From the NCBI GenBank assembly GCA_947624935.1, contig CANQML010000009.1, forward strand, positions 1 through 34,404: 34,404 nt of DNA, in the 5' to 3' direction. The position numbers and the translations under genes are program-made. This DNA comes from Candidatus Gastranaerophilales bacterium. GTDB taxonomy: Bacteria; Cyanobacteriota; Vampirovibrionia; Gastranaerophilales; Gastranaerophilaceae. Below are positions 18,616 through 26,568 of the stretch, in pieces. The notes beneath the pieces are model-generated. The model ran no database searches. It had not been told where the DNA came from and saw only the letters and a program-made list of their open reading frames with translations. Numbering within the stretch: position 1 is the stretch's first letter; each line of letters starts with the position of its first letter.

Positions 18616-18906
18616 TTATTTAATTTGTGGAAAAGAATCTAAGTGTCTCTTCACATCAATTTTATACTTAGCGGCGACATGATTTATCATATTAATATCC
18701 AGCATATTATTTAAAATAGCAATCGCCACAGCATTTGTTTTATTCTTGGCATTAAGTTTTAAGTAAATATTTGCAAATGTCTTTTTTACGGTTGCAACAC
18801 TGACAAACAAAATCTTGGCGATATTTTTACTTTTATATCCCATAGCCGCTAGTAAAAGAATTTCCAATTCTCTTGGAGCAAGAACATTTTCAAGCATAGT
18901 CTTCAT
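18616..18906 (-). CDS. Stand-alone LuxR-type HTH protein, cassette A left
   Basis: ATG 18906 is chosen (MKTMLENVLAPRELE) because TAGGGA lies just before it; the longer frame to 18990 needs a TTG inside the inverted repeat. The 96-aa product is essentially one GerE/LuxR C-terminal domain: LAPRELEILLLAAMGYKS, then VSVATVKKTFANIYLKL. It has no receiver or ligand domain. Proteins of this class bind promoter DNA through the second helix-turn-helix helix. It is nearly identical to the 24136 gene apart from the last residues, and clearly paralogous to those at 19699 and 25439. Its 5' region forms the left arm of an inverted repeat around the 19035 gene. Confidence 0.85.
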   Translation of the reverse strand: MKTMLENVLAPRELEILLLAAMGYKSKNIAKILFVSVATVKKTFANIYLKLNAKNKTNAVAIAILNNMLDINMINHVAAKYKIDVKRHLDSFPQIK

Positions 18907-18953
18907 ATATTTCCCTATCCATAAGAATATCGTATAAATTAAAAATGCTATGT

Positions 18954-18991
18954 AAATTATCCTTTTGGCTACTTTTTTGAAAATTCGCAAA
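18954..18991. repeat. Inverted repeat, left arm, cassette A
   Basis: The reverse complement contains GTAGCCAAAAGGATAATTT and, beyond it, AT-rich sequence aligning to 19632-19667 with few mismatches. The arms face each other across the 19035-19517 gene. Confidence 0.85.
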
Positions 18992-19016
18992 AAAAAGCAC
19001 CCTAACGGGTGCTTTT
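18990..19016 (-). terminator. Rho-independent terminator of the cassette A central gene
   Basis: AGCACCC-TAAC-GGGTGCT forms a 7-bp stem (18996-19002 with 19007-19013) followed on the minus strand by a T-run. The same hairpin ends the 24836 gene at 25348-25365 in the opposite orientation. Confidence 0.88.
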
Positions 19017-19034
19017 ACCGGATACTTGAAATCT

Positions 19035-19517
19035 TTATTCTTTTGTCACATCTTTCATTCTGAAAGTTCGAACATATTCAAACCATGGTTTATCGCCCTG
19101 TGTTAATTGTGCAACCTGACCAACTGTATCCCCACTGTCATCTACTAAGTTATAAATACCATTGGTATTATTATCATTATCTTTTATATAATAGATTCTA
19201 GGATATTCTATAGGCAAATCGTTGGAATTTTTTAATATATCGTCAGTAACATCTCGCATATATGTATTCCATGCTATTGCAAATTGTGGTTTTTTATCTC
19301 CCGGATTTTCAATAACTCCGACGTCATAGTGCATATTAGGGTCTAAGTCTCTAAATTCAATTTGTTCACCGTTACCTTTTACAAAGTCTTTAACTTGAGT
19401 TCCTGTTTTTGTGTCAAACAACCCGTAAGCTCTTTCAGGCTGCGCCGGATTAATTCTAATTGTTCTCGGTGTGGGAATTAAAATAACTTGCTCGGGTGCA
19501 TCAAAATTCTTTTCCAT
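19035..19517 (-). CDS. Unknown 160-aa protein, central gene of cassette A
   Basis: I do not recognise this family. ATG 19517 is used because AAAGGA lies eight bases upstream, as in the twin gene; both products are then 160 aa. It is soluble with no signal peptide and beta-rich, acidic segments: QVILIPTPRTIRINPAQPER, AYGLFDTKTGTQV, DLDPNMHYDVGVIENPGDK, PQFAIAW, GIYNLVDDSGDTVGQVA, and a C-terminal FRMKDV. The FRDLDPNMHYDVGV pattern recalls a fibronectin-III-like strand-turn, but that is only an impression. It is enclosed by an inverted repeat and outward-facing LuxR-type genes, and it is paralogous to the 24836 gene, which lies in the reverse orientation within its own copy. Confidence 0.8.
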   Translation of the reverse strand: MEKNFDAPEQVILIPTPRTIRINPAQPERAYGLFDTKTGTQVKDFVKGNGEQIEFRDLDPNMHYDVGVIENPGDKKPQFAIAWNTYMRDVTDDILKNSNDLPIEYPRIYYIKDNDNNTNGIYNLVDDSGDTVGQVAQLTQGDKPWFEYVRTFRMKDVTKE

Positions 19518-19631
19518 AATCATAGTCCTTTCTTATTTTGTTATCGTTACTAATACAATATTATTATTTCACATATTTATAATTTAGAAAATAATATTAA
19601 AAAATTTAGTTACAAATATTAAAAAATGGTG

Positions 19632-19667
19632 TTGCAAATTTTTAAAAAATAGCCAAAAGGATAATTT
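19632..19667. repeat. Inverted repeat, right arm, cassette A
   Basis: It contains TAGCCAAAAGGATAATTT and pairs with 18954-18991. The sequence from about 19651 through the start of the HTH gene is identical to 25391-25478 in cassette B over at least 80 bp. Confidence 0.85.
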
Positions 19668-19698
19668 CTTTATTAAATTTAATCTATAAAATATTTAT

Positions 19699-19986
19699 AT
19701 GAATAGAGGGAGTACGCCGACTATATCTTATAAAGTTTTGACTACGAGAGAATTGGAAATTCTTTTACTAGCGGCTATGGGGTATAAAAGTAAAAATATT
19801 GCCAAAATTTTATTTGTAAGTGTCGCAACAATAAAAAAGACTTATGGGAATATTTATCTAAAGCTTGATGCAAAAAATAAAACAAATGCCGTCGCTATTG
19901 CAATTTTACACAAGATGATTGATATCAATATGATAAATCATATCACTGCGAAATATAACTTAAATATGGAAGATTATGCTAAATAG
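19699..19986 (+). CDS. Stand-alone LuxR-type HTH protein, cassette A right
   Basis: The 95-aa product starts MNRGSTPTISYKVLTTRELE and continues with the same GerE/LuxR domain as its siblings (AAMGYKSKNIAKILFVSVAT, IKKTYGNIYLKLDAKNK). It differs from the 25439 product at only three positions (T/P, Y/L, T/A). There is no Shine-Dalgarno sequence next to the ATG; TATAAA lies eight bases upstream, so the mRNA leader may be very short. It faces away from the central 19035 gene. Likely a DNA-binding regulator of the cassette or its neighbours, inferred from position only. Confidence 0.85.
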   Translation: MNRGSTPTISYKVLTTRELEILLLAAMGYKSKNIAKILFVSVATIKKTYGNIYLKLDAKNKTNAVAIAILHKMIDINMINHITAKYNLNMEDYAK

Positions 19987-20003
19987 TTTGCAATTTGGGG
20001 TTT

Positions 20004-20267
20004 TTACCCTAACAAGCTAAAACGATTTTGTATCTTGAAATTGTTGGGCAATAATGCCCAACCAACTTGCAGCCATGTTTTATCGGATTGGAATTGTACA
20101 TAATCAGATGGTTTATGGGTGACAATTCCCATCCTTGTATCATGAATTTGTAAAAGAATATTAGAATAACAATGAATTAAAAAACGGAATAAAGCTATAC
20201 CCATCCAAAGTTGTTCAAAACTGATTCGTAAATAAGTCCCCGTTTGTAATTCTTTAAAGCTGAACAT
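20004..20267 (-). CDS. Possible small protein downstream of the AAA ATPase (87 aa)
   Basis: The frame begins MFSFKELQTGTYLRISFEQL 10 bp after the ATPase stop and includes a moderately hydrophobic stretch (IALFRFLIHCYSNILLQI). No family is recognised. The same DNA occurs in cassette B (25714-26003), where a one-base deletion breaks the frame, so it may be either a real gene with a broken twin or merely duplicated non-coding DNA. The 3' part overlaps the GTTGGGCA hairpin at 20043-20062. Confidence 0.35.
   Translation of the reverse strand: MFSFKELQTGTYLRISFEQLWMGIALFRFLIHCYSNILLQIHDTRMGIVTHKPSDYVQFQSDKTWLQVGWALLPNNFKIQNRFSLLG
20043..20062. repeat. GTTGGGCA hairpin downstream of cassette A right HTH gene
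   Basis: A perfect 8-bp stem (20043-20050 with 20055-20062) closes an ATAA loop. The relative in cassette B (about 25777-25796) is imperfect. No T-tract follows. Confidence 0.6.
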
Positions 20268-20277
20268 TATCTACTTT

Positions 20278-21474
20278 CTATTTGCCAATCAGCCAATCCA
20301 AAACATACATTTGTTTTATCCCGTTATGCGATACATTGGGGACATTATCCATTGTTAATAAGTATTTTGGATTATGATCTCTTATGTCGTTCAGTGACTT
20401 TAGTTCTCTATCTAAAGTTGTTCCGCCCATAACCGTGTCTGCAACCTGATAGTATTCGGTGTATCCGTCTTTTATTGCTACAAAATCAACTTCTTTATTG
20501 TCAACTTTTCCAATATATACTTCATATCCGCGTCTTAAAAGTTCCAAATATATAATATTTTCCAAAACATGACCCAAATCTACATATTTTGTGCCAAGCA
20601 AATAGTATCTTAAACCAATATCAACAAGGTAATATTTTCCGTTTGTTTCTAAATACTGCTTGCCCTTTACATCATATCGGTTTGCTTTATACAAAATATA
20701 GCTTTTACATAGAGCATCTAAATAGTTTTCTACGGTATGATTTGATATTTTTTTATTCATCGAGGTCATTGTATCACTGATTTTTTTAGCGGAAGTTGAA
20801 TTCCCGATATTATCGAACATAAATTTAACAATATTTTCTAACCCAGTTACATCAGATATTTTATTTCTCTGGACAACATCTTTAAGTATAACCGTATTGT
20901 AAATTCCACTTAGGTATGTTCTTATTTGTTCTTTTTCATCATTTAGCTGTAATACATAAGGAAATGAACTGTTTTCTAAATATTTACGATACCTTGTCTG
21001 AATATCGCTATTGTCATTATAAAATGATAAATATTCCTTAAATGACAGGGGCAGCATTTCAATTTCAACATATCTGCCGGATAAAAGAGTTGCCAGCTCT
21101 CCTGACATAAAATAGGCATTAGAACCTGTTATATAAATATCAGTGTTTTCTTTTATATATAAACCATCTATCGCTTTTTGATAATCCTTTACATTCTGAA
21201 TTTCATCTAAAAAAATATAATTTTTTTCATCGGGCTGAAGTTTTGATTTTATGTATTCATAAAGTTTTTTATAATCAGTTAAATCTTCGTTATCAGGGTC
21301 TTCAAAATTAAGCGATATTATTTGAGAATTTTTAATGCCATTTTTCAATAAATAGTCTTGAAATAGCATTAATAAGGTTGATTTACCGCATCTTCTTATA
21401 CCGGATATTACTTTTATCAGTTTTTTGTCCTTAAAACTTATCAGTTTTTGCAAATATTCATTACGTTCTATCAT
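20278..21474 (-). CDS. AAA ATPase with DUF4143 C-terminal domain
   Basis: The start is set at ATG 21474 (MIERNEYLQKLISFKDK), the usual start of this family and just past a consensus promoter. The 398-aa product has an AAA_14 domain: Walker A GIRRCGKST (about residues 26-34), Walker B YIFLDEIQNV, and the sensor-like ITGSNAYFMSGELATLLSGR. A DUF4143 domain follows, with the nuclease-like EVYIGKVDNKEVDFVAIKDG and a YYQVAD strand (E/D-x-K-like PD-(D/E)xK remnant). The family is widespread in gut bacteria and archaea and its function is not established. It lies between cassette A and the Kiwa operon; a defence or mobile-element role is inference. Confidence 0.9.
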   Translation of the reverse strand: MIERNEYLQKLISFKDKKLIKVISGIRRCGKSTLLMLFQDYLLKNGIKNSQIISLNFEDPDNEDLTDYKKLYEYIKSKLQPDEKNYIFLDEIQNVKDYQKAIDGLYIKENTDIYITGSNAYFMSGELATLLSGRYVEIEMLPLSFKEYLSFYNDNSDIQTRYRKYLENSSFPYVLQLNDEKEQIRTYLSGIYNTVILKDVVQRNKISDVTGLENIVKFMFDNIGNSTSAKKISDTMTSMNKKISNHTVENYLDALCKSYILYKANRYDVKGKQYLETNGKYYLVDIGLRYYLLGTKYVDLGHVLENIIYLELLRRGYEVYIGKVDNKEVDFVAIKDGYTEYYQVADTVMGGTTLDRELKSLNDIRDHNPKYLLTMDNVPNVSHNGIKQMYVLDWLIGK

Positions 21475-21480
21475 ACATAC

Positions 21481-21510
21481 ATTATAAACTACTTTCTTAA
21501 AAAATGTCAA
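21481..21510 (-). promoter_or_regulatory. Consensus sigma-70 promoter, leaderless start for the AAA ATPase
   Basis: TTGACA (21510-21505), an 18-bp spacer and TATAAT (21486-21481) match the consensus at all twelve positions. Only six bases separate TATAAT from ATG 21474, so transcription should begin at or beside the start codon. Confidence 0.85.
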
Positions 21511-22074
21511 GTTTTGGAAATGTGTTTCTAAAAATATGTAAAAATAAAATTTTTTGGAATGAATTTATTAACATTCAATATAACTTTATAAAAAAGTATC
21601 AGAAATCCTAAGAATGAATTATCAGGGAGCTTTAAAATGCATCCCTCTAAATGGCATTAAAATTAAGAGCTCTCTAAAATTTACGACACATTTTTCTCAA
21701 TCTTTCTGAGAATTTTTATAACTGGGCACGATAAATACAGAAGAAAAATCGGAAGTTATAAGTAAATTATTTGAAATTATCTTGCCGAAATAATCAGCTG
21801 ACGCATACAGGCTCAGCCATCCTCACTTCGTTGCGGTGTTTCGCTTTGTAAAACTAAGTGATTCAAATAATCAAACTAAGTGTCTCTTTACAACTTCGTA
21901 TAAAGTGAAATGAGAAACCAGAAAAAGTACCAAGAATTTCCAGAAAACCACGAATGGTAATTATGTATAGAATTTATCTCTAAAGTATGTAGGATTTTAT
22001 CAAAATAAAAATTCTTATTTGTTTTGGATTAGTGAAATATTGTCTTTTTAAATGTATAAAATATATTATTGATT
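21511..22074. other. Intergenic region with decayed gene fragments
   Basis: No intact gene is seen. On the plus strand a 31-codon frame (21614-21709) starts MNYQGALKCIPLNGIKIKSS and stops. A different frame then reads GTINTEEKSEVISKLFEIIL to a stop at 21793, which looks like a frameshifted short gene. CTAAGTGATTCAAATAATCA at about 21860-21880 is a fragment of the DNA beyond the left HTH gene of cassette B (about 24113). The remainder to 22074 is AT-rich with no recognisable signal. Confidence 0.4.
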
Positions 22075-23085
22075 TTATTTACTTTTTTTATTACCAGTTA
22101 AAAATTTACCAATCGTTCCCAAAAAAGATAATTGACCTATTCTTTGATCCGAAATTAATCGTAAATCTTGTGTAATAATATTTTGATGTGGTTCTAAATT
22201 TAGTAAACTTAATAGTACCTCAATATATTCTTCCGAAGCATTTTCTTCTAAAATCAATTTTTTAGCTTTTTTATCTATCTTAATTCTTTTTTCTTCTGGC
22301 AACGCTTCATTTGCTTTTATTACATTATTGAAATTATTAATTACTTTATCAATTTTATTTTGAGTAAATATATTTGCTAATTTTTTGATTGAACGTTCTC
22401 TATTGACATATGGGAATGTTTCAAGGTTCACACCGGATATTATTGATTTATTATGGATTATTTCAATAGCAGATTTAGCTCTTTTAATATATTCTTCTTT
22501 ATATTTAAACATTGTTTCAAATTGTTTTTTATGAAAGATTATAATTTTACTTAAGCTTTCAATATATATACAATCAAAATAATTTGGAATGGAAATTAAG
22601 TTTTCTTTAAAATTCTTAACTTCATACGAATTCTGCAGTATAAAAAGTTTTTTCCCTTTAAATAAATTTAAGGGATTATAACTTGTAAAACAGATTGCAC
22701 GATCACCATTATTTGTTGTGTATGAAACAATAACCATATTTGTAGTTATATCGTTTGATGAATTATCAGTTAATTTTTTGACATCTTGATTTTGTATTGC
22801 GTCTAAGAAAACATTTAGAAACGGAACCTCTTTTGCATCGATAGAATATATACAATCAATTTCTGCTGTATCGATATCAATGGAATAAGGACTAATTGTC
22901 TTATATCGGAAATTTTTTATTACTGATTGTATTATGTTAACTATTTCAGGTCTGATTTGTTCATTTAAAATTAATCTATAATTACTTTTTATAATTTTAG
23001 TTTTATTTTGGTTGCATCTATCTAAATAATGCAAATTAACAGATACATCCTTTTGTGTAAATTTGTCTAATGTTTTAAATGGCAT
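22075..23085 (-). CDS. kwaB: Kiwa anti-phage protein KwaB (DUF4868-like)
   Basis: The 336-aa soluble protein has no membrane segment. Its middle and C-terminal parts (IEIIHNKSIISGVNLETFPY, VNRERSIKKLANIFTQNKI) resemble the DUF4868/KwaB family as I remember it. It follows the gene of a membrane protein of KwaA size by 10 bp, with GGAG before its ATG. Kiwa is a two-gene anti-phage system: KwaA sits in the inner membrane and responds to infection, while KwaB binds DNA and blocks phage replication and late transcription. The pairing, gene order and sizes support the call more than any single motif. Confidence 0.75.
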   Translation of the reverse strand: MPFKTLDKFTQKDVSVNLHYLDRCNQNKTKIIKSNYRLILNEQIRPEIVNIIQSVIKNFRYKTISPYSIDIDTAEIDCIYSIDAKEVPFLNVFLDAIQNQDVKKLTDNSSNDITTNMVIVSYTTNNGDRAICFTSYNPLNLFKGKKLFILQNSYEVKNFKENLISIPNYFDCIYIESLSKIIIFHKKQFETMFKYKEEYIKRAKSAIEIIHNKSIISGVNLETFPYVNRERSIKKLANIFTQNKIDKVINNFNNVIKANEALPEEKRIKIDKKAKKLILEENASEEYIEVLLSLLNLEPHQNIITQDLRLISDQRIGQLSFLGTIGKFLTGNKKSK

Positions 23086-23095
23086 AAATTGACTC

Positions 23096-23734
23096 CTATT
23101 TATTTTGCATGTTACTACCGGCTATCAGTATTTCTTCGTCATATTGTAAAAAATTTACGATACTATTCTCAGATATTTTTTTTATTTCTTTAGGGGTTAT
23201 TATGAAAACATCTTGTACTTCTTTTCCAAGATTTAATATTTTACCTGAAATTTTAAATGCTTTATAACCAAAAGAATTAAGCAATGGATTTATATACAAC
23301 ATATCAGAATTAATGTATATAATACCTATCGTTGTAATCAGTACAATAATACAGTATAAATTAATAGTAGAATTTAGATTCAAGGATAAAAATGGTACTA
23401 AATATGTAAATATATAGGTCATACTTTCTGAAGTTACATTTTTTGTTTCAGATACTTCTATTTTATCTTGTATAAGTTGGTTATGTTTATTTAATAAACA
23501 TAAAAGGAAACAAATCCCAACAAGAAGCAAAATTAACAAAATAGTTACAGGGTGAATAAATATTTTTATAATAATCAAAATATCAAAAATTGAATAGATA
23601 TGTCCTTTCTTGAAAATATTAAAAAAATCTAGAAAATTTTTCGTAATGGTATTATGATTCTGAATTAGTATGATTAAAAACAAAGGAGCATAAGAACTAC
23701 AAAACAATAATATTTTAGATTTCAAATTAATCAT
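23096..23734 (-). CDS. kwaA: Kiwa membrane protein KwaA
   Basis: The 212-aa protein has about four hydrophobic segments: residues ~6-24 (LLFCSSYAPLFLIILI), ~48-80 (two closely spaced helices around IHPVTILLILLLVGICFLLC), ~107-121 and ~125-142. A soluble C-terminal tail of about 65 residues follows. The small size, four-helix plan and adjacency to a KwaB-like gene identify it as KwaA. AGGAG lies eight bases before ATG 23734. It is first in the operon, with the promoter region in 23735-23830. Confidence 0.72.
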   Translation of the reverse strand: MINLKSKILLFCSSYAPLFLIILIQNHNTITKNFLDFFNIFKKGHIYSIFDILIIIKIFIHPVTILLILLLVGICFLLCLLNKHNQLIQDKIEVSETKNVTSESMTYIFTYLVPFLSLNLNSTINLYCIIVLITTIGIIYINSDMLYINPLLNSFGYKAFKISGKILNLGKEVQDVFIITPKEIKKISENSIVNFLQYDEEILIAGSNMQNK

Positions 23735-23828
23735 GCCGAATTCTCCTAACCTTATTATATAACATAAAAGACGAATAATTGGAAATAATAGTTATATTAT
23801 TATTGAATATAATAAAATAAGTTTGTAG

Positions 23829-23855
23829 ATAATGTCTTGAAAGTCAAGACATTAT
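23829..23855. promoter_or_regulatory. Perfect 12-bp hairpin upstream of kwaA
   Basis: ATAATGTCTTGA (23829-23840) pairs fully with TCAAGACATTAT (23844-23855) across an AAG loop. It lies about 95-120 bp upstream of the kwaA start and 45 bp downstream of the short frame at 23900. There is no T-tract, so an operator or RNA structure is as likely as a terminator. Confidence 0.6.
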
Positions 23856-23899
23856 ATTATTGTATCTTTTCAAAGGGTTGACTTAGTTCAATTTCAATT

Positions 23900-24088
23900 C
23901 TATTGGTCAAAAACGCAGCGCCACCCAGTGTTTTTCCATTCTTGGTTTTTACTATCTTTAAAGTCAAAATTATGTTTGGCTTCATTAAATACAGCTTGTA
24001 TGTAATCCTCTTTAGTTCCTGTAACAGCTATTTTTTCAAATCCTTTGTATCGATTTAATATTTTAATCAAGTAGGATGAGTGGAACAA
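23900..24088 (-). CDS. Short hypothetical frame, possible gene remnant (62 aa)
   Basis: A TTG-initiated frame reads YLIKILNRYKGFEKIAVTGT and KEDYIQAVFNEAKHNFDFKD, ending GWRCVFDQ. It has protein-like composition but no ribosome binding site, and a stop codon lies just two codons upstream of the TTG. An overlapping frame starting MTIVPLILL suggests a frameshifted remnant. GTGGAA/TTCCAC arms at about 24080-24100 give a small hairpin. No family recognised. Confidence 0.3.
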   Translation of the reverse strand: MFHSSYLIKILNRYKGFEKIAVTGTKEDYIQAVFNEAKHNFDFKDSKNQEWKNTGWRCVFDQ

Positions 24089-24135
24089 TTGTCATTCCAC
24101 CCATTTTACATTCTAAGTGGTTCAAATAATCAAAC

Positions 24136-24408
24136 CTAATACCTTTTTACATTTACATCAATTTTATACTTAGCGGCGACATGGTTTATCATATTAATAT
24201 CAATCATATTATGTAAAATTGCAATCGCCACGGCATTTGTTTTATTTTTGGCATTAAGTTTTAAGTAAATATTTGCAAATGTCTTTTTTACGGTCGCAAC
24301 ACTTACAAACATAATCTTGGCGATATTTTTACTTTTATAACCCATAGCCGCAAGTAAAAGAATTTCCAATTCTCTTGGTGCGAGAACATTTTCAAGCATA
24401 GTCTTCAT
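24136..24408 (-). CDS. Stand-alone LuxR-type HTH protein, cassette B left
   Basis: The 90-aa product from ATG 24408 is almost identical to the 18616 gene: L/M, N/H and L/I changes, then a different C-terminal end (IDVNVKRY). It has the same single GerE-type domain with RELEILLLAAMGYKSKNIAK. The upstream sequence up to the inverted-repeat arm at 24456-24493 is identical in the two copies by eye. It faces away from the central 24836 gene. Confidence 0.85.
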   Translation of the reverse strand: MKTMLENVLAPRELEILLLAAMGYKSKNIAKIMFVSVATVKKTFANIYLKLNAKNKTNAVAIAILHNMIDINMINHVAAKYKIDVNVKRY

Positions 24409-24455
24409 ATATTTCCCTATCCATAAGAATATCGTATAAATTAAAAATGCTATGT

Positions 24456-24493
24456 AAATTATCCTTTTGGCTACTTTTTTGAAAATTCGCAAA
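24456..24493. repeat. Inverted repeat, left arm, cassette B
   Basis: Same sequence as 18954-18991. It pairs with 25371-25407, which carries GTAGCCAAAAGGATAATTT on the plus strand. Confidence 0.85.
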
Positions 24494-24835
24494 ATTGACC
24501 CCCTAATTTTGAAAAAGTAACAAAAAGTTTTCAGAATTTTTTAAAACAGTATTTAGGTTTTAACCCAATTTACCAGTCTTCATAATACCCAAAAATTGAA
24601 AAATTTATTTTTTGCTGATTTTTAATATTTTATCTTTAAAAAAATATACGCATTATTAGTTTGTAAATCTGATTATCCGACGAATCTATTTGTCAGCTTG
24701 CAGTTTTGGATTTCTTGCCAAAATCACTATAGAAAATTTTGTAACTGAATTTTAATATTATTTTCAAAAATAAAAATATATGAAATAATAATATTATGTT
24801 TAATTATGATGAAATTTATAGAAAGGACAAAGATT
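24494..24835. other. AT-rich leader region of the cassette B central gene
   Basis: About 200 bp (24494-24710) have no counterpart in cassette A. The following stretch (about 24735-24830), with TTTTGTAACTGAATTTTAAT and GAAATAATAATATT, matches the reverse complement of 19524-19615, i.e. the upstream region of the 19035 gene. It probably holds the promoter and carries AAAGGA before ATG 24836. No ORF is supported. Confidence 0.6.
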
Positions 24836-25318
24836 ATGGAACAAAACAAATTTTCAAACGATGCACCGGAGCAAGTTATTTTAATTCCAAACCCGAGAAT
24901 TATTAAAATTAATCCAGCGCAGTCTGAAAGAGCTTACGGGCTTTTTGATACTAAAACAGGAACTCAAGTCAGTGAATTTGTAAAAGGCAACGGCGAACAA
25001 ATTGAATTTGACAACTTAGACCCAAACATGCACTACGATGTCGGGGTTATTGAAAATCCGGGAGATGAGAAGCCCCAATTTGCAATAGCGTGGATGCCAA
25101 ACATGCGGGATGTTACTGATGATATATTAAAAAACTCGAATGATTTGCCTATAGCATATCCCAGTACTTACACAATAAGATATAAAGACGGCAATGGGGT
25201 GTATGATTTAGTAGACGACAAAGGTGAAGTGGTCGGTCAGGTTGCGAATCTGACACAAACGGGCGATAAACCATGGTTTAATTGTGCTCACACTTTCAGA
25301 ATGAAAGATGTACAATAA
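24836..25318 (+). CDS. Unknown 160-aa protein, central gene of cassette B
   Basis: A close paralog of the 19035 product with the same length from the chosen starts. Conserved stretches are DAPEQVILIP, NPAQ(P/S)ERAYGLFDTKTGTQ, GNGEQIEF, LDPNMHYDVGVIENPGD, DVTDDILKNSNDLPI and FRMKDV. The divergent parts lie in two loops (around residues 110-125 and 140-152), a pattern compatible with selection on loops. No function can be assigned. Unlike in cassette A, it is transcribed rightward, toward the right HTH gene, and its terminator lies against the right inverted-repeat arm. Confidence 0.8.
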   Translation: MEQNKFSNDAPEQVILIPNPRIIKINPAQSERAYGLFDTKTGTQVSEFVKGNGEQIEFDNLDPNMHYDVGVIENPGDEKPQFAIAWMPNMRDVTDDILKNSNDLPIAYPSTYTIRYKDGNGVYDLVDDKGEVVGQVANLTQTGDKPWFNCAHTFRMKDVQ

Positions 25319-25345
25319 ATAATTTAGCACAAACAAAATAATTAA

Positions 25346-25373
25346 GAAGCACCCTAACGGGTGCTTTTTTTTG
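25346..25373 (+). terminator. Rho-independent terminator of the cassette B central gene
   Basis: AGCACCC-TAAC-GGGTGCT (25348-25354 with 25359-25365) followed by eight Ts. Same hairpin as in cassette A, but here at the right end of the central segment. Confidence 0.9.
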
Positions 25374-25407
25374 TAAATTTTTATAAAAGTAGCCAAAAGG
25401 ATAATTT
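25371..25407. repeat. Inverted repeat, right arm, cassette B
   Basis: It pairs with 24456-24493. From 25391 onward it is identical to cassette A (19651 onward) into the HTH coding region. Confidence 0.85.
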
Positions 25408-25438
25408 CTTTATTAAATTTAATCTATAAAATATTTAT

Positions 25439-25726
25439 ATGAATAGAGGGAGTACGCCGACTATATCTTATAAAGTTTTAACTCCGAGAGAATTGGAAAT
25501 TCTTCTACTTGCGGCTATGGGGTATAAAAGTAAAAATATCGCCAAGATTTTATTTGTAAGTGTTGCAACAATTAAAAAGACTTTGGGTAATATTTATCTA
25601 AAGCTTGATGCAAAAAATAAAACAAATGCCGTCGCAATCGCTATTTTACACAAGATGATTGATATCAATATGATAAATCATATCGCTGCTAAATATAACT
25701 TAAATATGGAAGATTATGCTAAATAG
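25439..25726 (+). CDS. Stand-alone LuxR-type HTH protein, cassette B right
   Basis: The 95-aa product MNRGSTPTISYKVLTPRELE is nearly identical to the 19699 product. It has the full GerE/LuxR helix-turn-helix (LTPRELEILLLAAMGYKSK, VSVATIKKTLGNIYLKLDAK) and no other domain. It lies 72 bp after the terminator of the central gene, on the same strand, and has the same A/T-rich short leader as its twin. In cassette B it could receive read-through from the central gene, which is impossible in cassette A. Confidence 0.85.
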   Translation: MNRGSTPTISYKVLTPRELEILLLAAMGYKSKNIAKILFVSVATIKKTLGNIYLKLDAKNKTNAVAIAILHKMIDINMINHIAAKYNLNMEDYAK

Positions 25727-26000
25727 GTTGTAGATTGGGGTTTTATTTTAACAAGCAACAATTTGGCATTTAAATTGTTGGACGAGAATGCCCAACCAAC
25801 TTGTAGCCATGTTTTATCGGATTGGAATTGTACATAATCAGATGGTTGATGGGTGACAATTCCCATCCTTGTATCATGAATTTGTAAAAGATAGTAGAAT
25901 AACAATGAATTAAAAAACGGAATAAGGTTGTACCCATCCAAAGTTGTTCGAAACTGATTCGTAGATAAGTCCCCGTTTGTAATTCTTTAAAGCTGAACAT
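25714..26000 (-). pseudogene. Frameshifted copy of the 20004 small frame
   Basis: The DNA matches 20004-20267, but one base is missing in the TTCTAATATTCTTTTAC stretch (here TTCTACTATCTTTTAC). The MFSFKELQTGTYLRISFEQL start is thereby separated from the LLQIHDTRMGIVTH part, which continues in the next frame. If the 87-aa frame is not a gene, this is merely duplicated spacer DNA. Confidence 0.4.
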
Positions 26001-26003
26001 TAT

Positions 26004-26146
26004 CTAGAGAGTAAACTCGTATTTACAAGGTAAGCAAAGTTTTCGTACAGACCCGTTTATTTTAATTCAGAAAGGAGTTCTATGAATAACAAATTCTACG
26101 AACTATAATAATTGTAAACAAATATATGTTTCTTTTTTTATAAATA
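26004..26146. other. Gap between cassette B and transposase remnant; 8-codon frame with strong ribosome binding site
   Basis: AAAGGAG (26073-26079) is followed by ATG 26083 and the short frame MNNKFYEL ending in TAA. This looks like the first codons of a gene whose body was lost. AAACTCGT at 26013-26020 recurs at 26630-26637 beyond the transposase and may be a target-site duplication. Confidence 0.4.
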
Positions 26147-26568
26147 TTATAATTTTAATCCTTCTCCGATGGTATATGCAATAACACGCTTTTGTCTTCT
26201 AGAATAAGCAGTCCATACGACTGCTCGATTTCTCTTTTTTTTACATAAGTATATATTTCATCTAACTCTATTACGTCAGCTTTGTCTGATACTAAAGGAT
26301 TAAAATTTTGTAAAAGCTCTGTTAATAATTTATGTGAATTCTTTATCCATTTTAATACTGCAGTAGGACTTACTCCGAAAAACAATGCTATTTTTCTTAT
26401 CCCTACATTATTTAAGTACATTAACAATGCTTTGTACTTAACTTCTTTTGAAAACCTTTTAGGTGTCTGTGCAAATGCCTTTTTACAAGACATACACTGC
26501 ATTCTTTGTGTGCCTCTGCTTTTCCCATTTTTTCTTACCTTTGTACTTTTGCAATACGGACATTCCAT
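26147..26568 (-). pseudogene. Truncated IS1-family transposase
   Basis: The zero-frame product is 137 aa. Its N-terminal zinc ribbon (CPYCKSTKVRKNG, MQCMSCKKAF) and HTH (GIRKIALFFGVSPTAVLKWI) are typical of IS1 InsA-type proteins. The first catalytic Asp region is VIELDEIYTYV. The frame leaves the family at an A8 run (26235-26242); stepping back one base restores KKKRNRAVVWTAYSRRQKRV and IAYTIGEG to a stop at 26147. Even so the last part of the DDE domain is missing, so the element is dead or needs help. The -1 step may be programmed frameshifting as known for IS1, or simply an indel in the homopolymer. Confidence 0.8.

What the first reader, a model, noticed from the sequence alone, without database searches (positions are those of the whole stretch)
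18616..26003. Two HTH-payload-HTH cassettes with the payload inverted between copies
In each copy two stand-alone LuxR-type HTH genes point outward, and each has at its 5' side one arm of a 36-38 bp inverted repeat (18954-18991/19632-19667; 24456-24493/25371-25407). Between the arms lies one 160-aa gene of unknown family with its own terminator. In cassette A the gene runs leftward with the terminator against the left arm; in B it runs rightward with the terminator against the right arm. The outer parts keep the same orientation. This is what inversion between the arms would give. I know of no described system with this layout. Whether inversion is active is inference; no recombinase gene is in the window.
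Basis: partly seen in the sequence, partly recalled or inferred. Interest (0 to 1): 0.85.

Follow-up and report, generated by a model that had tools for sequence, protein, structure and literature searches.

The report
Recombining twin-regulator cassettes around mobile gene
A gut bacterium carries at least five scattered copies of a cassette in which two small DNA-binding-protein genes point away from one unknown gene; the middle gene does face opposite ways in different copies, but the sequences point to ordinary recombination between the copies rather than to a purpose-built DNA switch.

Summary
The layout is real. Cassettes A (18616-19986) and B (24136-25726) each hold two outward LuxR/GerE-type HTH genes, arms with an exact 17-bp core, and one ~160-aa gene facing opposite ways. 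The genome has two further cassettes with payload (one lacking its right HTH) and one cut by a contig end. Payload orientation relative to the two leader types is 2:2 and differs within both pairs of nearest relatives.

A dedicated invertible switch is not supported, though not excluded. The arms are the inner ends of an inverted duplication of whole HTH genes, and those genes are mosaics of one another. A and B payloads differ more at silent sites (dS 0.77) than their flanking HTH genes (0.31, 0.24). Their 5' junctions do not match. The payload carries its own upstream region and terminator. No known recombinase family lies on the cassette contigs. Best reading: homologous exchange between inverted HTH repeats leaves orientation unfixed.

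A second genus has the same layout without short arms. The payload family matches no database, is under purifying selection, and was found only in "Lapin" (rabbit) gut MAGs, including Alphaproteobacteria bins. Orientation within a living population is untested.

The parts
18616..18906 (-). HTH-L of cassette A: stand-alone LuxR/GerE-type DNA-binding protein, 96 aa, points outward
   Evidence: PF00196 E=1.8e-14 on the longer ORF; start chosen from alignment of all copies
18954..18991 (.). left arm of A; contains exact 17-bp core TAGCCAAAAGGATAATT (minus strand), overlapping a GATAAT -10-like box
18992..19016 (-). payload terminator hairpin of A, abutting the left arm
   Evidence: sequence AAAAGCACCCGTTAGGGTGCTTTT; repeated at B 25344-25368
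19035..19523 (-). payload gene of A, 162 aa, no known family, dN/dS about 0.2; weak FN3/Ig-like fold
19632..19667 (.). right arm of A (17-bp core on the plus strand at 19650-19666)
19699..19986 (+). HTH-R of cassette A, 95 aa
   Evidence: PF00196 E=4.4e-14
20035..20273 (.). outer repeat downstream of HTH-R; part of it also dispersed elsewhere in the genome (C10, C151, C35), in two cases at a contig end; probably not a gene
20278..21510 (-). AAA_14/DUF4143 ATPase (PADLOC PDC-S01 candidate defence protein) between the two cassettes
22075..23085 (-). KwaB-like (Kiwa anti-phage system) between the two cassettes
23096..23734 (-). KwaA-like (Kiwa) between the two cassettes
24136..24408 (-). HTH-L of cassette B, 90 aa
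   Evidence: 94% DNA identity to HTH-L of A
24456..24493 (.). left arm of B, identical to the left arm of A through its inner end
   Evidence: 24440-24494 vs 18938-18992, 55 nt, 100%
24494..24760 (.). extra 5' leader of B, absent in A, C43 and C98; its first part resembles a dispersed intergenic repeat (C98:2765-2827, C43:5161-5215, C89:372-429, C98:198-265)
24836..25318 (+). payload gene of B, 160 aa, opposite orientation to A
   Evidence: 82% DNA identity to payload A, dS 0.77
25344..25368 (+). payload terminator hairpin of B, abutting the right arm
25371..25407 (.). right arm of B
25439..25726 (+). HTH-R of cassette B, 95 aa
   Evidence: PF00196 E=8.3e-15; 95% DNA identity to HTH-R of A
25769..26006 (.). 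outer repeat downstream of HTH-R of B
   Evidence: 93-95% to 20035-20273

Best explanation
A and B are two members of a small family of dispersed HTH-payload-HTH units that recombine with one another. The two outward HTH genes with their upstream regions form a long, imperfect inverted repeat around the payload. A payload segment flanked by such repeats can be exchanged between units, or flipped in place, by general homologous recombination in either direction, so its orientation is not fixed. The payload brings its own upstream region and terminator, and in both orientations its start lies beside one arm and HTH leader, so either orientation is probably functional and the flip largely neutral. 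The 17-bp core is most likely the shared promoter/operator of the HTH genes. Shown: five or more units, 2:2 orientation relative to leader types, mosaic HTH genes, payload more diverged than its flanks, payload under purifying selection. Inferred: that the exchange is RecA-type, that orientation is neutral, that the core is an operator, and that the HTH proteins regulate the payload.
For: Copies: 9 exact arm cores on C9, C43 and C98 only; 8 closely related HTH genes and 4 cassette payloads. Nearest-relative pairs by HTH-L and leader are A/B and C43/C98 (first 60 nt 100% within each pair), and each pair has opposite payload orientation. Mosaicism: 339 aligned columns, 112 polymorphic; long identity runs between L and R copies (C43s_R with B_L and A_L; C43_L with C43_R; C98_L with A_R, B_R, C43_R and C43s_R) reached in 0 of 2000 permutations; C98_L has an L leader and N-terminus with an R C-terminus and R outer flank. 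Payload A-B dS 0.77, HTH A_L-B_L 0.31, A_R-B_R 0.24. B's 5' leader resembles a dispersed repeat, not A's leader. Payload upstream block and terminator recur in other genera. In genus g7 the same layout exists without short arms.
Against: In A versus B the HTH genes themselves are not swapped: L and R types stay on their own sides, so the last A/B event had its ends at the arms, only 36-38 bp long, which is short for RecA. The 17-bp core is kept even in C98's right arm, which has lost its HTH gene, as a recombination site might be. The terminator-arm junction is shared by all four cassettes on either side, as clean inversion predicts. All divergence estimates come from short genes and are noisy; gene conversion of the HTH genes alone could also make the flanks look younger than the payload.
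Confidence: 0.55

Rival explanations
1. A dedicated inverton: a site-specific recombinase encoded elsewhere acts on the arms (core TAGCCAAAAGGATAATT) and flips the payload, changing which HTH gene it is divergent from.
For: 17-bp core exact in all 9 arms while neighbouring columns vary; A and B differ in orientation with ends at the arms; the genome has 9 tyrosine-recombinase matches and 1 serine-recombinase match above cut-off; one contig (C43) begins inside an arm.
Against: No PF00589 or PF00239 match on C9, C43 or C98; payload divergence exceeds that of the flanks; 5' junctions not homologous between orientations; the core contains a -10-like box and lies directly upstream of HTH genes, so a promoter explains its conservation; g7 units lack arms; the contig break is also explained by exact repeats shared between copies.
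Confidence: 0.17
2. Independent insertion: the payload is a mobile single gene that entered pre-existing divergent HTH pairs several times, in either direction, because the target is nearly palindromic.
For: Payload copies are dispersed and multi-copy in many genomes without HTH genes, including an Alphaproteobacteria bin with four near-identical copies in otherwise GC-richer contigs; in G148 a payload abuts an HTH gene cut exactly at the payload block's start; payload dS between A and B (0.77) is close to that between A and another genus (0.81).
Against: The four cassette payloads form one clade (97/78 support) and share a terminator-arm joint, so the common ancestor was probably already in a cassette; no transposase, terminal repeat or target duplication was seen.
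Confidence: 0.2
3. Old duplication plus assembly error: orientation differences are artefacts of short-read assembly across repeats.
For: The assembly is in 181 contigs, and A/B share exact repeats of roughly 100 nt at the leaders.
Against: L and R leaders differ (about 78%), so swapping interiors between A and B cannot reverse a payload relative to leader types; the exact L/R match is only about 17-22 bp; the pattern repeats on separate contigs (C43, C98).
Confidence: 0.05

Closest known systems
Intergenic and gene-containing invertons (PhaseFinder-type; e.g. PMC11892184)
   Same: Segment between inverted repeats found in opposite orientations at related loci
   Different: No evidence of both orientations at one locus; no linked recombinase on the contig; the reversed segment is not the same sequence; the payload carries its own upstream region, so no on/off promoter switch is evident
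RecA-dependent inversion between homologous inverted genes (e.g. Campylobacter fetus sap locus; from own knowledge, no paper found in the library)
   Same: Inversion and exchange between homologous inverted gene copies, with mosaic genes
   Different: Here the homologous parts are small regulator genes and the middle is a single gene of an unknown family; activity not shown
LuxR/GerE-type DNA-binding-domain-only regulators
   Same: PF00196 match, 90-98 aa, no sensor domain
   Different: Present as inverted pairs around one gene, in at least two genera of the family
Dispersed mobile single genes / gene cassettes
   Same: Payload is multi-copy, dispersed, with own upstream block and terminator, and in bins of two phyla
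   Different: No integrase, attC, transposase or terminal repeats recognised with the payload

Membership tests
Inverton (site-specific invertible element) | Inverted repeats flank the segment | tested here: met
   Arms with exact 17-bp core
Inverton (site-specific invertible element) | Both orientations occur at the same locus | not testable with these tools
   One genome per species, no reads; none of the 15 other genus genomes searched has the payload
Inverton (site-specific invertible element) | Reversed segments are otherwise the same sequence with reciprocal joints | tested here: not met
   A/B payload 82% DNA identity, dS 0.77, against HTH dS 0.24-0.31; non-homologous 5' leader. Compared between loci only
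Inverton (site-specific invertible element) | A tyrosine or serine recombinase acts on the repeats | tested here: inconclusive
   Ten above-cut-off recombinase matches in the genome, none on the cassette contigs; which, if any, acts is unknown
Inverton (site-specific invertible element) | Inversion switches expression (invertible promoter) | tested here: inconclusive
   Payload upstream block and terminator stay with the gene in both orientations; no expression data
LuxR/GerE DNA-binding domain | Match to PF00196 above its curated cut-off | tested here: met
   52-55 bits against cut-off 23.5
Fibronectin type III fold (payload) | Seven-strand Ig/FN3-like sandwich | tested here: inconclusive
   Mean pLDDT 66, best blocks 81-89 in residues 21-60; best Foldseek E 0.01; VIA Z at most 6.8, 76 residues aligned, rmsd 2.8
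IS element / composite transposon | Transposase within the unit | tested here: not met
   No transposase match in the cassette ORFs; the IS1-like remnant lies outside, at 26155-26568

The most novel reading that the evidence does not exclude
The payload is a host-ecosystem-restricted, cross-phylum mobile single gene that pairs with outward LuxR-type regulators to form a self-contained unit whose orientation is actively flipped through the 17-bp arm core, changing which of the two regulators shares its control region.
Probability: 0.12. Interest if true: 0.85.

Novelty: new variant of a known kind. Interest (0 to 1): 0.5.

Why it matters
If right, it shows how inverted regulator pairs can let a cargo gene be swapped and reversed between chromosomal sites without a dedicated recombinase. 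It also points to an uncharacterised gene family that spreads in many copies, in bins of two phyla, apparently inside one animal's gut ecosystem, with no recognisable mobility machinery.

Tried and rejected
Viral contigs: no relatives of the payload or HTH. Phage and plasmid records: none. The arm core outside this genome: two single matches in 383 family genomes. One is inside a coding sequence and is taken as chance. The other (G281:C7, L110) is intergenic near tail-fibre-like genes, has some further similarity, and stays unresolved. Arms in the g7 units: none found. PADLOC scan of 106 payload neighbours: scattered defence matches, no clear enrichment, and no background rate was measured. 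Genus-wide search for an empty C98 site: only dxs and dispersed repeats matched, so the cassette ends were not pinned. Consensus promoter scan of the arms: TTTTCA-16-GATAAT in both left arms, but hits in A are no more than in shuffles. Papers: no described LuxR-flanked invertible unit, no paper on the 'Lapin' project.

Full report
OBSERVATION. The two cassettes are present as described. In each, two stand-alone LuxR/GerE-type genes (PF00196) point outward, each with an arm on its 5' side, and a ~160-aa gene with a terminator lies between. In A the payload runs left, in B right. The arms match far beyond chance (0 of 3000 shuffles for A). They are, however, the inner ends of a larger inverted duplication that takes in the HTH genes themselves (240 nt at 82-84%).

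MORE COPIES. The same genome (G000, 181 contigs) holds nine exact arm cores TAGCCAAAAGGATAATT, all on C9, C43 and C98. They mark A and B; a cassette on C98 (payload +, right arm present but HTH-R lost, next to dxs); a cassette on C43 (payload -); and a fifth on C43 that the contig start cuts inside the arm. Two more payload relatives (C116, C31; 55-56%) have no HTH genes. The HTH family at this identity is found only in this genome among 383 searched.

ORIENTATION. By HTH-L and leader sequence the closest pairs are A/B and C43/C98 (first 60 nt 100% within each pair). Each pair has opposite payload orientation relative to the L and R leaders, so at least two changes are needed. Relative to the outer flanks only B differs clearly, because C98's HTH gene joins an L-type start to an R-type end and R-type downstream sequence. 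Swapping A and B interiors during assembly cannot produce this, because L and R leaders differ (about 78%).

WHY NOT A SIMPLE INVERSION. Payloads A and B differ more than their flanks: dS 0.77 against 0.31 (HTH-L) and 0.24 (HTH-R). Payload A is about as far from B as from a copy in another genus (0.81). The arm-to-payload 5' joints differ: A and C43 share about 20 bp, C98 has about 34 bp of other sequence, and B has about 270 bp whose first part resembles a dispersed intergenic repeat. The terminator-arm joint is shared by all four, which suggests a common cassette ancestor; the payload tree agrees.

EVIDENCE FOR GENERAL RECOMBINATION. Over 112 polymorphic HTH columns, several L-R pairs share identity runs never reached in 2000 permutations: C43s_R with B_L (columns 235-304), C43_L with C43_R (170-238), and C98_L with A_R (364-395). 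Inverted HTH copies therefore exchange sequence within and between cassettes. Such exchange, with arms in inverted order, would admit a payload in either direction. This last step is inference.

RECOMBINASES. The genome has nine tyrosine-recombinase matches and one above-cut-off serine-recombinase match, none on C9, C43 or C98. This does not exclude action from a distance.

THE PAYLOAD FAMILY. It has no match in Pfam, NCBIfam or PADLOC, only marginal PHROG hits, and none in phage or plasmid records. Its dN/dS of about 0.2 among cassette copies indicates a working protein. A model from 46 sequences is of modest quality (pLDDT 66) and looks FN3/Ig-like. It occurs in 28 of 383 family genomes, often several times, usually without HTH genes. 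All 66 loci found among 84,980 species come from MAGs named 'Lapin', read here as rabbit gut from the name alone. Four loci lie in Alphaproteobacteria bins. In one of these bins four near-identical copies (GC 0.33-0.34) lie among genes of mostly higher GC, up to 0.49. Misbinning was not formally excluded.

SECOND GENUS. In G148 (genus g7) locus L238 is HTH(-), payload(+, with stops), HTH(+): the same layout with HTH genes only about 42-46% identical to these. The two HTH genes form a 177-nt inverted repeat at 76%, with no short arm. Three other G148 loci have partial versions, and in L077/L183 an HTH gene is cut exactly where the payload block begins. The payload orientation relative to the left-type HTH is the same wherever it can be judged there.

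SETTING. A and B bracket a candidate defence ATPase (PDC-S01) and a Kiwa pair (KwaA, KwaB), followed by a type I restriction system. The two C43 cassettes also bracket what looks by sequence like a DUF4143-type ATPase (not scanned against Pfam or PADLOC). This may be chance or a trace of cassette-mediated exchange.

VERDICT. Observation confirmed; inversion in a broad sense partly supported; a dedicated switch not supported and not excluded.

Noticed in passing
L174-L239: Every payload relative found in 84,980 species genomes is in a 'Lapin' MAG; four loci are in Alphaproteobacteria bins. A gene family apparently confined to one host ecosystem but present in two phyla.
   Followed up: partly
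L181:1479-3489: In an Alphaproteobacteria contig two payload copies bracket a RelB/YafQ-like toxin-antitoxin pair; flanks contain CCTGGATCC.../CAGGATGACG intergenic repeats.
   Followed up: partly
window:20278-23734: Candidate defence ATPase (PDC-S01) and Kiwa KwaA/KwaB lie exactly between cassettes A and B; tRNA-Met lies just before A.
   Followed up: partly
L063:5706-15803: Five full-length payload copies (plus a shorter relative) in about 13 kb, alternating with unrelated accessory genes (Fic-like, HigBA-like, Abi-like by eye), between ribosomal-protein genes and lepA.
   Followed up: no
L017:4083-5192 and L073:4361-5160: Payloads lie beside the 3' end of dxs in two genera (also L079), with HTH genes only in this genome: possible insertion hotspot.
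   Followed up: no
L017:2765-2827, L018:5161-5215, window:24469-24530: A dispersed intergenic repeat (GGCTACTTTTT..TTTGCAAAA..TTGACCCC) precedes YD-repeat-like genes and the B payload; its start overlaps the inner half of the arm.
   Followed up: partly
L110:1500: An arm-like sequence (AATTATCCTTTTGGCTACTTTTTT) in another genus, intergenic beside phage tail-fibre-like genes.
   Followed up: partly
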